From Glomus cerebriforme (lineage: Eukaryota; Glomeromycota; Glomeromycetes; Glomerales; Glomeraceae), in assembly GCA_003550305.1 (NCBI GenBank), contig QKYT01000031.1, forward strand, positions 130,408-194,407: DNA of 64,000 bases, written 5' to 3'. Of this stretch, positions 2,022-27,196 are shown piece by piece. Below the pieces are notes generated by a model. That model made no database searches and was not told where the DNA came from. It saw nothing but the letters and a program-made list of their open reading frames with translations. The position numbers and the translations under genes were made by a program. The stretch's first letter is position 1; every line of letters starts with the position of its first letter.

Positions 2022-4542
2022 ATGAATAATCAGGCGCGGGCATCGCGTCACGCGTCTGGAATTTTACCATCAAAACAGTTTTTTGCACCAAGAAAACCAA
2101 TAACACATAATGCCTCATTACGAAGGAAGTCTTCTGTCGTTGGTAATTCATTAAATACACCACCATCACCTGGATCAACATTTACTTCCGCAATAGGTCC
2201 TCAGCTTCTAAATTTTTCCTCTGAAGAAGAAGCTTCTCTTTTACATCAATCTTCTTCGCTCGCTCTTGCCACCTTTTCGGCACACTCTTCCCCCATCATC
2301 AATAACCCTTCACTTGACCAATCGGTTGATACTATTTTTAATTCAGATGCCTCTGTTGTTAACCGAAATTCAACACCGGTTAGACCTCCAAGTGCTTTAC
2401 TTTTAAGACGTCAACAACGTCAACAAAGTGGTGAAGGTGGAAGCACAGAATTATCTCAAGCTGTTATTGATTCAGTTATGGAACCAATTACTCCGGTACC
2501 AGTTTTAGAACCCTCATCATATAGACAATTAATGCGTCAAGCCACAATCAATACAGGGTCAGATCTATCATCAAGAGATTTTGCAGCTGCTACCGCTTAT
2601 TCTAGACATTCTGATGTTTCTCCTAATACACCTTCTTCTAATACTAAACTTACTATGATGTCATCAAAGATATTAAACGCATCTTCTCCAACAAAACAAC
2701 CTACTTTTAATCCTTATGCATTAATTAAAATGCCTCGTATTATATCACCTCATTCATTATCTTCGACTGATTATAAAGGACAAAAACGTTTATATCAAGT
2801 GTGGCCCGGAAGAAATCGATTTTTTTTAGGTGGTAGGATCATGACTAGTAGAGATTTTCCTGCTTTTTTGGTCGCTTTTTCTGCTCTTGTAGTCCCATCT
2901 GGGTTATTTATGGGGTTTACGTAAGTGTATTTACAAATAGTACAAATAAGAAATTATATTATTTAACTTTTTTTTTTTTAATTAAATTTATATAAAATCT
3001 TAGTTGTCCTTTTCTTTTTCAAAATGTATCTCCAGCGGTGGTATTTATATTTGTTTATTTATTTTTATTGGCTGTGACTAGCATGCTTAGAACTTCATGG
3101 TCTGATCCAGGAGTGAGTTTCATCTTATTTTTAATTTATTGCACTCTCATAATTAATCATCGGGTTTTATTAACAACAATTTAGTAATTTATTTGATACA
3201 ATGGAACAATTTTTGCTACAGATTATTCCAAGAGATTTGGATCCATCTCCTCCAACAGAATATATAGAGGATTTAGAAAATTCTCAAAATAATACAAATC
3301 TTGCTTATGAACAAGCTCGTAGTTTTCCACTTCCAAAAGAAGTTAAAATCAATGGGCAAACCGTTAGATTAAAATATTGTGAAACATGTAAAATATATAG
3401 ACCACCTAGATGTAGCCATTGTAGACAATGCGACAATTGCGTAGGTGAGTACCTAAATTTTATTTTTCTATTTATTTATTTATTTTTTACAAAATAATAA
3501 TTTTTTTTTATTCTTCAGAAAATGAAGATCATCATTGTATCTGGTTAAATAATTGTATAGGACGACGAAATTATAGGACATTTTTTACATTTATAGCAAC
3601 AGCTACTATTTTATGCGTTTATGTTCTAGGGTTTTGTCTGGCACATTTATTACTCCTCATGAAACAAGGATCACATAATTTTTTTGAAGCAATTATGAAA
3701 GCACCTGTTAGATATCCTTTTGTTTGTAACAATTTTTTTTATTCAATATTAAAATTCTCCTTAACTAATTGAAAACCTTTCTGTTAGTTGTATTGTCCTT
3801 TTTCCTTATGTGGTCTGTAGGTGGATTAACAGGTTATCATATGTACTTAATAAGTAATAATCTAACTACACATGAACAAGTAATTTATTTGATATTTTTT
3901 TAATAACGATAATAGTTAATTTGAATTTGTAAATAATATATAATTATATATTTAGATACGTGTTCCTATAGCAAGAAGGAATGGTAACAGGAATCCATTT
4001 GATTTTAGGAATGTGGGTAAGAATTGTCTTTGGGTTCTTTGTAGACCTATGTCACGAAGGTTAGTTTTTTTTTGTTTTTCGTAATATTGTATTAATTAAA
4101 ATGAGATATATTATTTATTTAATAAGAAAAAATTTTTTTCTTTCATAATTAATAAAGCTCGGTCAGTAGACGCGCTTATGTTGATAATGAAAATTTACAA
4201 GAAGAAAATGGTGTTGGAAATACTTTTAATGGAGGTGTTAGAAGTACAGTTATAGCAGGTGAAATCGATACAGGTGAAATAGATAATAACGCACTTGGTG
4301 AAGGTGACATAAGAGTAGACATAAAAGAAGTTATTACCTTTAATAATGGTGATGATTTAAATGAATTACAACCACAACAAAATGAAAATAATAATATAAA
4401 AGAAGACACAAAGCAAGTGTCATCATCTTTCGAACCAACTGTTCCATCTATTGAAACTGATGAAAATAGTTCCGTGCCAGTTGCAAAAGAACAAATCAAA
4501 GAATTACAAATAACAGAACCAATGGTTACAACAGAAACATAA
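2022..4542 (+). CDS. ERF2: DHHC palmitoyltransferase, Erf2-like
   Basis: Membrane protein S-acyltransferase that transfers palmitate to cysteines of client proteins; yeast Erf2 does this to Ras at the ER with Erf4. Seven exons: 2022-2920, 3004-3112, 3222-3444, 3519-3725, 3788-3879, 3956-4059 and 4158-4542, giving 672 residues. A long Ser/Thr/Pro-rich, probably disordered cytosolic N-terminus (about 1-265) is followed by two membrane segments (about 277-326). The Cys-rich domain begins [17 protein letters not shown] and ends at the catalytic DHHC, residues 414-417. Two more membrane segments follow (about 433-460 and 480-500), then an acidic, Asn/Gln-rich tail. The [12 protein letters not shown] segment supports the exon 2/3 junction. 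An open frame runs upstream to 1953 but has no ATG before 2022. The N-terminal extension is longer than in yeast Erf2. Specific Ras activity is inferred. Confidence 0.93.
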
Positions 4543-10001: not shown

Positions 10002-12215
10002 TTATTTTTTATCATCTTTCATTGAACTATTTGAAGATTCTTCAGTTATGACTTTAGGCGTTACATCAAATTTGTCCGGAAATGAATTGAATGTGGGTGT
10101 AACTAGCTTCGATGGTGTTACTGGCACTATAATTGTTTTAAAGAATAAACGAAAAATCGATAAATTTTACACAAATTCAAATAATGTAATAATTTGTTTT
10201 TGATTAATATATACCTCTACTCCTTGGTGATGCAGCATAAGAAGCTCTTAATTGAACATCTACTCCAACTGATTTTGGCATATTCGATTTACGCAATAAT
10301 TTTCTTGCAGCTGGCGATAGTAACGATGCACGCTCTCTTGGACTAGATATTCTTATTTTTTTTAAAAACAAAAAAAAAATTAATAAAAACTTATAATGGA
10401 TAATAATAGAAATAAAAAATCTCTGTAATTTCCGCACTTTGACAAAGGACTTTGGGTAACATATGGATTAGGTGATTTCATAGACAGATTTCGTTTACGT
10501 AAATTTCGTGAGGCATTATTTGAAAGATTCATCCCAATAATTTCTCTGCGTGGTGCAGGTGGTAATTGAAAAGAACGTCCTAAATTTATAAAAAATAAAT
10601 ATTTAATATTCAATTTCATAGAGAGAAAAAAAAAATATATTACTTTTTTTTCGCTTAAGCTTCTTCTATTCAGTAAGAAATTACCATAAAGCTATTACAT
10701 TATTCCACTCGGCACCTAAATGCTGGCCGGTGAATAGTTTTTCAAAGAAAAGCTCAACTAAGAAACTGAAAAAAAAGTAGAATATATGCTAAAAATAAAA
10801 TTACATACCTGGTGTTTCTCCTCCAATTAATAACGGAGTACCTTCAATCATACCCCAAGTCATCAGTTCTGAGCTGTCAACTTGTGAAGGATTTGGAGAA
10901 GGTGTAGCTGTTACAAAACTGTAACCGCCGATTGTAGGAGTTTCAGACACATTACTACTACCTAAAAAAAATAAACTTATTTTAATTCACTACAATAAAA
11001 TGATATTATTACAAAATAATTATAAAGAACCAAACGTACTATCGAGATCGATACCAGCAGCAGCTGCCGCTGCTGCAGTAGCTGCCGCATGACTTGTTAT
11101 TGTCTATTAGAATATTTAGGTATAAGTGAGTTGATAAGTTTAAAATGAGAAAAGGAAAATGAAATGAACCAAAAAAAAAAAAAAAAAAATCTACCATTTC
11201 TTCTGTAGACTCAAACCTTGTGGCGTTATGTACGATTTTTTTAGGTGCACTCCGTGTATTTTCTTCAACCGTTCCAATATCGTGACCTTCGGGATAAAAC
11301 ATAAGAGAGTTGCGAGTCTTCAAATTTTAAAATAAAATACATTAATTTTTTTTCTTTAAAAATATATATATATATATATAAGATTAATTTACGGAAAAAA
11401 AATCAATTACCTACCTTGTAATTCCATGATGCAATTCCAGAAATTCTGGACTGATCGGGTCCTTCAATCATCTTTATCTTATCCTTATTATCCTCTTGAT
11501 CTTCATCTTCATACATCCACTTATATTTTTCCTTTTGTTGTTCATTAGCTTTTTTCATCAATTCTGAAAAGGTACGGTCAATTTGTGGTTAAGGAATAAA
11601 AAGGAAAGATCCAAACTATTAAATTAAATTCATTATAACACTAGATTAACTTTAAATGATATAAAGAGATGCAAATAATAATATATTGTAAGGATATGAA
11701 GCATTATCTTCGCTGGTATACTTTGTTTGAAATGCATCCAAGGACATGTTAGTATTATACTTTTTTGGTAATGGCTTTTTAAATTCACCCGATCCATTAG
11801 TAGATATTGGTGTATCCCATTCTCCACGTGTCCCAATCGCAGTTAAACTTGTTTTCGGTGTTTGTACTAAATGAAGCAAGAATTTATGGTTAATACAACA
11901 ATAAATGAAAACTTAATTAAGAGAATAATAAAAAATGAGAAATATACTAGGTGTTTTCACTGTAGGAGTCGTCAACTCAGTTAGTTTACGGGTAGCTTCC
12001 TTAATAAGTTCAGGATTATTTGTATTCCATGCATCTACGTAATCGTTTTGAGCCTCAAGAGTTAAAAGAGAGGGGAAGAAATCTCGTTTAATGATTTCAC
12101 TTAAAGCTTCTGTATATGAATCTTCATCTAAAATTTCTTGCTTTGGTTTTGAGAAAACTTTTGATCGATCATCGATTCGAATTAAGTCTTTCTTTGGTGT
12201 TGAACTCTCTTCCAT
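10002..12215 (-). CDS. ESS2: ESS2 (DGCR14/Bis1) splicing-associated nuclear protein, with an AT-AC intron
   Basis: Homologue of human ESS2/DGCR14 and fission-yeast Bis1, a nuclear protein of the late (C) spliceosome. Nine exons on the minus strand: 12215-11948, 11866-11698, 11571-11415, 11317-11195, 11103-11040, 10961-10809, 10579-10438, 10342-10215 and 10126-10002, giving 442 residues. Diagnostic blocks are SYTEALSEIIKRDFFPSL, EAQNDYVDAW, TPKTSLTAIGTRGEWDTP, YTSEDNASFSELMKK, RISGIASWNYKTRNSLMFYP, TWGMIEGTPLLIGG and SPRERASLLSPAARKLL. Seven of the eight introns are GT-AG. Intron 2 is not: no GT donor keeps the conserved EDNASF block, but an AT-AC splice with U12-type donor and branch site does so exactly (separate entry). 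The gene shares strand with TOE1 upstream. Confidence 0.92.
11572..11697 (-). other. U12-type AT-AC intron in ESS2
   Basis: A 126-nt, phase-2 intron. On the minus strand it opens ATATCCTTAC immediately after the exon bases GCTTC. It contains TTCCTTAAC (plus-strand 11588-11596), a perfect match to the minor-spliceosome branch-site consensus, and closes GTAC|C with 16 nt between that motif and the terminal AC. Splicing gives EDNASFSELM, agreeing with the conserved EDNASF block of the family. There is no GT donor nearby that preserves frame and this block; read-through reaches a stop within about 20 codons. Confidence 0.88.
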
Positions 12216-19354: not shown

Positions 19355-20574
19355 ATGGTGAGTACAAGGAATTCTTATAATTTCAGTTTTTTATGTCTTA
19401 TGATCGAAACTAATTGACTTTATAGTCAAGTAATACGGGAACTTCCTCACATCAATCAAAAAAAGTTGTATCAAAAGATGAATGGGTTAAGAAATTATCG
19501 GACGTCAAAATTAACAAAAAGTAAAAAAAACTTTATTATTTAACAATAACTTTTAAAAAAGTTCCTTTTATTTGCGTTGATCATAAACTAAATGGGTTCA
19601 TTCTACCAATTCATAGTGATCTCAATAAACTTATAATGAATTATTTCGTAATTGAAGGATATAAAGATGCTGCCGAAACGTTTAGTCAGGAGTGTGGTCT
19701 ATCACCGAGCATTGATGTTGATTCTATACAAGATCGTATGAATATTCGGAATGCCATACAAAATGGAAATGTTGAAGAAGCAATTGAACGTGTGAATGAT
19801 TTAAATCCAGAGGTAATATATGTTTATATCATATGATTTTATGATTTAAAAACAATGATTAGAAAGTGTTATGCACCACTCTTAGACTCTTTTGTGGTCA
19901 ATGAAGATAAATTATACACCATTCAGTCTTCAATATGAGTTTTTATAATTAATTAATATATAAAATTAGAAAAATATTATGAATTAAAAAAAAATTACAA
20001 TATTTCATTAATATTGTCCCGATTGTGGAAAATATCTTGAATTAGATATTGGATACAAATCCAAAATTATATTTTCATCTACAACAGCAGCGATTAATAG
20101 AATATATTCGGGAAGGAAAGATAGCTGAAGCTTTAGAATTTGCTCAAGATGAATTGGCGCCTCGTGGAGAAGAAAATGTGATTATTTATTTTTATCCTTA
20201 ATTATGATATTATTTTTATTTTTTATTAAATTTATTATTATATTTATTTGTAATAGCCTGAATTCTTAGAAGAACTAGAACGTACAATGGCATTATTAGC
20301 ATTTGATGACAAGACAGTTTCTCCTGTTCGTGATTTACTCCATCCTTCACAACGTCAACGTACAGCAAGCGAATTAAATGCAGCAATCTTAACTTCACAA
20401 AGTCAAGAAAAAGATCCTAAATTACCGAATATGCTAAAAATGTTAGTTTGGGCTCAAGATGAGTTAGACGAGAAAGTTTTATATCCTAAAATGAAAAATC
20501 TTGTCACTGCGGAATTGGTCGACGGTAACAATAATACCACAACAAATTCTGGAAACAATTTTTTATCAACATAA
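19355..20574 (+). CDS. GID8: GID8 (TWA1) subunit of the GID/CTLH ubiquitin ligase
   Basis: Scaffold subunit of the GID/CTLH E3 ligase, which in yeast degrades gluconeogenic enzymes after a return to glucose. Five exons: 19355-19357, 19426-19520, 19617-19812, 20046-20177 and 20257-20574, giving 247 residues. After a Ser-rich start comes LisH ([19 protein letters not shown], about 36-68), then CTLH ([20 protein letters not shown]) and CRA segments ([20 protein letters not shown], then [15 protein letters not shown] and ERTMALLAF). The first coding exon is only the ATG, directly followed by GTGAGT; exon 2 has no ATG in frame and the next in-frame Met lies inside LisH, so this start is needed. 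The tail is Asn/Thr-rich. Confidence 0.92.
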
Positions 20575-26153: not shown

Positions 26154-27196
26154 CACTGGTCAAAAACTGATCTATCTTACAGATATCTNNNNNNNNNNNN
26201 NNNNNNNNNNNNNNNNNNNNNNNNNNNNNNNNNNNNNNNNNNNNNNNNNNNNNNNNNNNNNNNNNNNNNNNNNNNNNNNNNNNNNNNNNNNNNNNNNNNN
26301 NNNNNNNNNNNNNNNNNNNNNNNNNNNNNNNNNNNNNNNNNNNNNNNNNNNNNNNNNNNNNNNNNNNNNNNNNNNNNNNNNNNNNNNNNNNNNNNNNNNN
26401 NNNNNNNNNNNNNNNNNNNNNNNNNNNNNNNNNNNNNNNNNNNNNNNNNNNNNNNNNNNNNNNNNNNNNNNNNNNNNNNNNNNNNNNNNNNNNNNNNNNN
26501 NNNNNNNNNNNNNNNNNNNNNNNNNNNNNNNNNNNNNNNNNNNNNNNNNNNNNNNNNNNNNNNNNNNNNNNNNNNNNNNNNNNNNNNNNNNNNNNNNNNN
26601 NNNNNNNNNNNNNNNNNNNNNNNNNNNNNNNNNNNNNNNNNNNNNNNNNNNNNNNNNNNNNNNNNNNNNNNNNNNNNNNNNNNNNNNNNNNNNNNNNNNN
26701 NNNNNNNNNNNNNNNNNNNNNNNNNNNNNNNNNNNNNNNNNNNNNNNNNNNNNNNNNNNNNNNNNNNNNNNNNNNNNNNNNNNNNNNNNNNNNNNNNNNN
26801 NNNNNNNNNNNNNNNNNNNNNNNNNNNNNNNNNNNNNNNNNNNNNNNNNNNNNNNNNNNNNNNNNNNNNNNNNNNNNNNNNNNNNNNNNNNNNNNNNNNN
26901 NNNNNNNNNNNNNNNNNNNNNNNNNNNNNNNNNNNNNNNNNNNNNNNNNNNNNNNNNNNNNNNNNNNNNNNNNNNNNNNNNNNNNNNNNNNNNNNNNNNN
27001 NNNNNNNNNNNNNNNNNNNNNNNNNNNNNNNNNNNNNNNNNNNNNNNNNNNNNNNNNNNNNNNNNNNNNNNNNNNNNNNNNNNNNNNNNNNNNNNNNNNN
27101 NNNNNNNNNNNNNNNNNNNNNNNNNNNNNNNNNNNNNNNNNNNNNNNNTAAGATATCTGTAAGATATCTGTAAGATAGATCAGTTTTTGACCAGTG
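26154..27196. mobile_element. CACTA-like DNA transposon with perfect terminal inverted repeats, interior unsequenced
   Basis: The left end at 26154-26188 begins CACTGGTCAAAAACTGATCT and continues CTTACAGATATCT. The right end (27149-27196, ending GACCAGTG) is its exact reverse complement over all 35 available bases and extends 13 more with another CTTACAGATAT unit. Both ends are flanked by ATA (26151-26153 and 27197-27199), a 3-bp target duplication. CACTG...CAGTG ends, a 3-bp duplication and repeated subterminal motifs are hallmarks of the CACTA (En/Spm) superfamily. The interior is 960 Ns, so coding capacity and true length are unknown. Confidence 0.8.
26189..27148. other. Assembly gap (960 Ns)
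   Basis: A run of Ns inside the CACTA-like element. Any open frame running through it is meaningless. The gap edges fall in inverted, self-repeating sequence, which explains why assembly failed. Confidence 0.99.

What the first reader, a model, noticed from the sequence alone, without database searches (positions are those of the whole stretch)
11572..11697. AT-AC minor-spliceosome (U12-type) intron in the splicing-factor gene ESS2
Seen: on the minus strand the exon ends GCTTC and the intron opens ATATCCTTAC, contains a perfect TTCCTTAAC 16 nt before the end, and ends AC. Splicing it restores the conserved EDNASF block and the frame; no GT-AG alternative does. Known: this donor/branch/terminal combination is the U12 AT-AC class, which most fungi have lost but some early-diverging lineages retain. 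Inference: this fungus has a working minor spliceosome, and a spliceosome-associated gene depends on it.
Basis: partly seen in the sequence, partly recalled or inferred. Interest (0 to 1): 0.8.

Follow-up and report, generated by a model that had tools for sequence, protein, structure and literature searches.

The report
Minor-spliceosome introns in a mycorrhizal fungus
The odd AT-AC intron in this arbuscular mycorrhizal fungus's ESS2 gene looks like a real minor-spliceosome intron, one of two in the stretch, in a genome that carries the special RNAs needed to remove it; this was already known for a close relative, but such introns seem to break public gene models of these fungi.

Summary
Window 11697..11572 (minus) is a 126-nt phase-2 AT-AC intron with a perfect branch motif. 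Of 342 open-frame splice combinations tested it gives the best ESS2 protein (3047 points; best GT-AG/GC-AG 2837). The same assembly holds U11 (two copies), U12, U4atac and U6atac above Rfam cut-offs, a perfect 16-nt U4atac/U6atac complement, and the minor-specific protein SNRNP25. A Glomus cerebriforme record is 98-99% identical to the palmitoyltransferase, so the window is that fungus or a very near relative. Minor introns are already published for Rhizophagus irregularis, same family (PMC10639083), so this is a new member of a known kind. Two additions: of 16 named glomeromycete ESS2 records listed, 15 lack the correct join; and the U12 gene here has the promoter layout of U6/U6atac (Pol III type), unlike U1, U2, U4, U5 and U11, whereas human U12 is Pol II. 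No RNA evidence for the ESS2 junction could be obtained, and the genome-wide intron count did not complete.

The parts
11572..11697 (-). ESS2 intron 2: U12-type AT-AC intron, 126 nt, phase 2
11688..11697 (-). 5' splice site ATATCCTTAC
   Evidence: pairs with the U11 5' end
11588..11596 (-). branch motif TTCCTTAAC, 16 nt before the intron end
10002..12215 (-). ESS2 (DGCR14/Es2) gene, 9 exons, 445 aa; the other 7 introns are GT-AG
3712..3776 (+). second U12-type AT-AC intron, 65 nt, phase 2: donor ATATCCTTTT, branch CTCCTTAAC (3757..3765), 11 nt, end AC
2022..4542 (+). DHHC palmitoyltransferase gene (Erf2/ZDHHC9/14/18-like), 7 exons, 671 aa

Best explanation
This is a genuine U12-dependent (minor-class) AT-AC intron in the ESS2 gene of a Glomus (Rhizophagus) cerebriforme-like arbuscular mycorrhizal fungus. 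U11 pairs with AUAUCCUU and U12 with the branch motif UCCUUAAC. U6atac, delivered paired to U4atac, replaces U11 at UCCUU, and splicing joins GCTTC to CTTTTC, restoring the EDNASF block. Shown here: the sequence signals, the frame test, the snRNA genes and their complementarities, SNRNP25, and public gene models of relatives that fail at or near the same place. Inferred: actual splicing of this transcript by the minor spliceosome, the order of pairings (from the general minor-spliceosome cycle, recalled), and dependence of ESS2 expression on it. By analogy with R. irregularis (205 minor introns) it is most likely one of many inherited minor introns; none were counted genome-wide here, and no special regulatory role is shown.
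For: Exact donor and branch, first of 342 splice combinations. Human ESS-2 and Bis1 align without a gap across the junction. In the same assembly: U12 70.8 bits (cut-off 53), U6atac 77.2 (33), U4atac 55.9 (53, a narrow pass), U11 77.0 and 69.2 (39). U4atac and U6atac share a perfect 16-nt complement; the U11 5' end gives 8 contiguous pairs, G-U allowed, to the ESS2 donor. SNRNP25: PF18036 at 50.9 and 30.1 bits, and E 1.1e-10 to 8r7n chain B, named U11/U12 25 kDa protein. R. irregularis P0001 and Geosiphon P0008 ESS2 records read on as NASYPCN and NASYP, as translation into a TCATATCC donor would give. A second AT-AC intron lies in the same window; its correct join is present in P0122 (676 aa, longest contig 2,113 bases) and P0127 (369 aa, 1,178 bases), contigs too short to hold the introns and so probably transcript-derived. 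Prior art in R. irregularis: 205 minor introns, all four snRNAs, minor-specific proteins (PMC10639083).
Against: No RNA reads across the ESS2 junction. No genome-wide count: the pattern search did not complete. Each motif alone is at about chance level in the window. Branch-to-acceptor spacing is long (16 nt) with a nearer, out-of-frame AC at 11. U12's branch-pairing stretch reads GUAAGGAU, so the first T of TTCCTTAAC finds no partner; for ESS2 the pairing script reported a different register as the longest run. CCDC84/CENATAC not detected (uninformative). Only one minor-specific protein was tested with success.
Confidence: 0.95

Rival explanations
1. An AT-AC intron removed by the major (U2-type) spliceosome; a few such introns are known (recalled).
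For: AT-AC termini alone do not prove U12 dependence.
Against: Donor positions 3-8 (ATCCTT) and a perfect TTCCTTAAC are the U12 signature, and minor snRNAs are present.
Confidence: 0.02
2. ESS2 is spliced here by an ordinary GT-AG or GC-AG intron and the AT-AC resemblance is chance.
For: Public models of seven relatives join across this region in other ways; each motif alone is at chance level.
Against: The best GT/GC-AG alternative scores 210 points lower summed over four homologues and loses conserved residues; the motif combination is expected about 0.1 times per window.
Confidence: 0.02
3. A broken or relic gene: the intron is no longer spliced and ESS2 is a pseudogene.
For: No transcript evidence in hand.
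Against: All exons are intact over 445 aa with Pfam Es2 at 267 bits; the same intron signature shows in the R. irregularis and Geosiphon records.
Confidence: 0.01

Closest known systems
Minor introns of Rhizophagus irregularis (Larue and Roy 2023, PMC10639083; outline with abstract, sections 24, 34, 41 and found passages read; supplements not seen)
   Same: Same family, Glomeraceae; U12 motifs, all four minor snRNAs, minor-specific proteins, 205 introns (0.272%)
   Different: Another species. The main text has no occurrence of ESS2, DGCR14, DHHC, palmitoyl, promoter or cerebriforme; its intron lists were not seen, so the R. irregularis ESS2 intron may be in them
U12 introns and minor snRNAs in other early-diverging fungi: Phycomyces and Rhizopus (PMC2846911, passages), Lichtheimia (PMC4133162, passages), Basidiobolus (PMC10639083, section 24)
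   Same: Minor introns or minor snRNAs retained outside Ascomycota and Basidiomycota
   Different: About 20 (Phycomyces) and 4 (Rhizopus) introns as quoted in PMC10639083; 249 in Basidiobolus; Lichtheimia paper reports altered U12 stems and no U4atac
Human ESS-2 (PDB 8c6j) and S. pombe Bis1 (PDB 9esi)
   Same: Same protein family; the TSEDNASF block is continuous across the junction
   Different: Whether those genes carry an intron at this place was not testable

Membership tests
U12-type (minor) spliceosomal intron | 5' splice site RTATCCTT | tested here: met
   ATATCCTTAC and ATATCCTTTT; +9 of the ESS2 donor is A, not the consensus T (consensus recalled)
U12-type (minor) spliceosomal intron | branch motif TTCCTTRAC close to the 3' end | tested here: met
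   TTCCTTAAC, 16 nt from the end (longish); CTCCTTAAC, 11 nt from the end
U12-type (minor) spliceosomal intron | splicing restores the conserved reading frame | tested here: met
   rank 1 of 342 and 1 of 55 open-frame combinations
U12-type (minor) spliceosomal intron | genome encodes U11, U12, U4atac and U6atac | tested here: met
   none over cut-off in the 14 control genomes (U11 at E up to 10 rang below cut-off in 3)
U12-type (minor) spliceosomal intron | minor-specific proteins present | tested here: met
   SNRNP25 found; CCDC84 not found, search uninformative; 65K and 35K not tested
U12-type (minor) spliceosomal intron | splicing depends on U12/U6atac in vivo | not testable with these tools
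   needs RNA and depletion experiments
ESS2 / Es2 (DGCR14) family | Es2 domain over Pfam cut-off | tested here: met
   267.2 bits, cut-off 27, profile 1-416 of 416
Pol III-type snRNA gene (for the U12 locus) | actual transcription by Pol III | not testable with these tools
   only promoter and terminator layout compared

The most novel reading that the evidence does not exclude
In this fungus the minor spliceosome's U12 RNA has moved from Pol II to Pol III control. Its gene has a TATA element at -28 with the same 34-nt spacing to an upstream RTCCCAYAA element as U6atac and two of three U6 genes, a T9 tract at its 3' end, no run of four or more T inside (its Sm-site region reads AAATATTTGG), and lacks the AGCGGGTT 3' box that U1, U2, U4, U5 and U11 carry. 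U12 and U6atac would then be co-regulated as a Pol III pair.
Probability: 0.5. Interest if true: 0.6.

Novelty: new member of a known kind. Interest (0 to 1): 0.4.

Why it matters
It extends to a further arbuscular mycorrhizal fungus the published finding that this lineage kept a minor spliceosome. Practically, annotation that does not allow AT-AC introns seems to corrupt these genomes: 15 of the 16 named glomeromycete ESS2 records listed lack the right join, and the G. cerebriforme palmitoyltransferase record replaces a conserved stretch by a GT-AG join. If the U12 gene is really Pol III-transcribed, that departs from the human pattern (U12 is Pol II, PMC5493778, passages) and can be tested directly by cap and inhibitor assays.

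Tried and rejected
Genome-wide count of ATATCCTT...TTCCTTAAY...AC introns: the same request was sent 12 times and each time was answered 'busy', so no genome-wide number is claimed.

CCDC84/CENATAC by Pfam: nothing in the own genome and nothing in the controls.

A looser scan of the window (at most one mismatch in each motif) gave 16 donor-branch pairs. Two were accepted. One at 19662(-), donor ATATCCTTCA and branch TTTCTTAAC, lies opposite a plus-strand open frame; it was not followed further and is presumed chance. The other 13 were not examined one by one; two of them use the ESS2 branch motif with other donors.

A paper search for DGCR14 with 'minor intron' found nothing, so conservation of this intron position in animals is untested. 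Searches were used as listings, apart from the papers named as read.

A first palmitoyltransferase model failed on a wrong start string and a wrong acceptor and was corrected.

Two snRNA-like loci below the gathering score (L011, U6-like, 30.5 bits; L018, U1-like, 40.1 bits) were left out of the promoter counts; L018 does have a GCGGGTT box.

Full report
What was checked. I built the whole ESS2 gene: nine exons at 12215..10002, 445 residues, seven GT-AG introns and this one AT-AC intron. The product is a full-length Es2 protein (Pfam 267.2 bits against a cut-off of 27). It is related to human splicing factor ESS-2 (E 3.1e-49) and S. pombe Bis1 (E 7.5e-10), which align without a gap over the junction.

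Is the AT-AC choice forced? Pairs of six terminus types around the junction were tried (donors 11790..11631, acceptors down to 11441); 342 keep the frame open. The claimed pair ranks first with 3047 summed alignment points over four homologues. The next ones are AT-AA and AT-AC pairs without a U12 donor (2991, 2987). The best GT-AG or GC-AG pair is a GC-AG with 2837 and loses conserved residues. Taken singly, the donor and branch motifs are no more frequent in the window than expected (6 against 7.7-8.2; 2 against 0.6-0.8). The combined donor-branch-terminus pattern is expected 0.10-0.12 times per window in simulated sequence; the window has two.

A second intron. The other match, 3712..3776 on the plus strand, is a 65-nt phase-2 AT-AC intron in a DHHC palmitoyltransferase gene. 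It too is the best-scoring open-frame choice, of 55 (4053 points; next an AT-AA pair, 4013; best GT-AG, 3961). The window's protein is 98-99% identical to a Glomus cerebriforme record, which names the organism or a very near relative. That record reads APVRYPFVCGLTGYH, exactly what the GT-AG pair 3726/3820 would give here: it translates into the AT-AC donor and loses SFLLVVLSFFLMWSVG. I aligned 18 glomeromycete or glomeromycete-like records of this protein, chosen from the 120 listed of 305 hits; at least five others (P0141, P0149, P0176, P0185, P0199) were not aligned. Five of the 18 are intact over the junction (P0122, P0126, P0127, P0128, P0131), three read into the donor (P0121, P0129, P0133) and ten lack the join. 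P0122 (676 aa, longest contig 2,113 bases) and P0127 (369 aa, 1,178 bases) sit on contigs too short to hold the introns, so they are probably transcript-derived; the database does not say so. Whether P0126, P0128 and P0131 have an AT-AC intron there is unknown.

Relatives of ESS2. The hit list shows 120 of 358 proteins; 16 of these (P0001-P0016) are named glomeromycete records. One (Gigaspora margarita, P0002) has the correct EDNASF join. Two (R. irregularis P0001, Geosiphon P0008) read on as NASYP, which a TCATATCC donor would give. Six begin downstream of the junction, three of them at MKK just after it and three at MYEKE somewhat further on. Seven have both flanks but skip the junction region. 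This is indirect evidence that the AT-AC intron is shared in the phylum. It is weaker than 15 independent cases, because many of these records bear names of one annotation style and other causes of truncation are possible. The genomic DNA of those species was not available to me.

Machinery. The assembly (112.5 Mb, 1117 contigs) has at least one U12, one U6atac, one U4atac and two U11 genes over Rfam cut-offs; U4atac passes narrowly (55.9 against 53). None of the 14 control genomes had a match over cut-off; the U11 search, run at E up to 10, rang below cut-off in three of them. U4atac and U6atac share a perfect 16-nt complement. The U11 5' end makes 8 contiguous pairs (G-U allowed) with the ESS2 donor and up to 11 with the second donor. 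U6atac AAGGA pairs with UCCUU. The script gave UCCUUA/UAAGGA as the best U12-branch pairing for the second intron; the ESS2 branch has the same hexamer, although the script reported another, longer register there. SNRNP25 (U11/U12-25K) is present: two exon matches to PF18036 (50.9 and 30.1 bits, the second running over one stop), and the joined fragment matches 8r7n chain B, U11/U12 25 kDa protein (E 1.1e-10). CCDC84/CENATAC was not found, but that search rang in no control. 65K and 35K were not tested.

What is already known. Larue and Roy 2023 (PMC10639083; outline with abstract, sections 24, 34, 41 and found passages) report 205 minor introns, all four minor snRNAs and minor-specific proteins in R. 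irregularis, a member of the same family. A full-text search for minor spliceosome with arbuscular mycorrhizal returned that paper only, and minor introns with Rhizophagus and U12-type likewise. Its main text names neither ESS2/DGCR14 nor the palmitoyltransferase; its supplements were not seen. The finding is therefore a new member of a known kind.

An unexpected side result. I compared the flanks of the 18 snRNA loci over cut-off: U1 x3, U2 x3, U4, U5 x3, U6 x3, U11 x2, U12, U4atac, U6atac. An upstream element RTCCCAYAA stands at -44 to -73 in 15 of 18, with one mismatch in 2 (U4, U5_3) and absent in 1 (U6_3). It occurs once in the 64-kb window, both strands. It resembles the plant USE (recalled). 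A 3' box AGCGGGTT starts 9-20 nt downstream in 11 of the 12 U1/U2/U4/U5/U11 loci (the twelfth, U1_2, reads AGCGGGAT); GCGGGTT is absent from the 60 nt after the other 6 (U12, U6atac, U6 x3, U4atac). With at most one mismatch to TTATATAA, a TATA element at -28 to -31 occurs only in U12, U6atac and U6 x3. Its start lies 34 nt from the start of the upstream element in U12, U6atac, U6_1 and U6_2, against 28 in U1_1, U2_1, U2_3 and U4, 20 in U1_2, 21 in U5_3 and 9 in U11a; the rest have none. Looser TATAAA words stand at -35 in U4atac and -23 in U11b. U12 ends directly in T9 and has no run of four T inside. Its Sm-site region reads AAATATTTGG where the Rfam consensus has AAUUUUUG. So U12 is laid out like the U6 and U6atac genes; in human U6 and U6atac are transcribed by Pol III and U12 by Pol II (PMC5493778, passages).

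Against that reading: T-runs also stand at the 3' ends of the three U5 genes, U4atac fits neither class, some Pol II-class bodies (U1_1, U1_2, U4) also lack T4 runs, one gene can match a spacing by luck in an AT-rich genome, and no transcript was examined. Two full-text searches for U12 with Pol III listed four papers; passages of two were read and none described such a switch, the other two were seen as listings only.

Limits. No RNA evidence for ESS2, no genome-wide count (pattern search did not complete), no check of the intron position in animals, and one minor-specific protein only.

Noticed in passing
window 3712..3776 (+): Second U12-type AT-AC intron, in a DHHC palmitoyltransferase gene; the public G. 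cerebriforme model has instead a GT-AG join that deletes part of a conserved stretch.
   Followed up: yes
L001 1400..1703 (U12 gene) compared with L002, L008-L010: U12 gene has the U6/U6atac promoter layout (TATA at -28, 34-nt spacing to RTCCCAYAA, T9 at 3' end, no AGCGGGTT box), suggesting Pol III transcription.
   Followed up: partly
L001-L005, L008-L010, L012-L017, L019-L022: A shared snRNA upstream element RTCCCAYAA (exact in 15 of 18 loci) resembling the plant USE (recalled), and a 3' box AGCGGGTT after the U1, U2, U4, U5 and U11 genes (11 of 12 exact).
   Followed up: partly
L004 and L005: Two U11 genes with similar flanks, apparently a duplication; L005 begins TACAAGGG, not TAAAAGGG, so its third base would pair with G rather than U at donor +9. 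R. irregularis ESS2 appears to have G there, judging from its protein record.
   Followed up: no
L003 1501..1623 (U4atac gene): U4atac has the upstream element but no TATA match at -28 to -31, no T-run and no 3' box; its promoter class is unclear.
   Followed up: no
P0001-P0016 (ESS2 records): 15 of 16 named glomeromycete ESS2 protein models lack the correct join: 2 read into the donor, 6 start downstream, 7 skip the region.
   Followed up: yes
window 26189..27148: A 960-base run of N, with six further single N in the window; an assembly gap or a withheld stretch.
   Followed up: no
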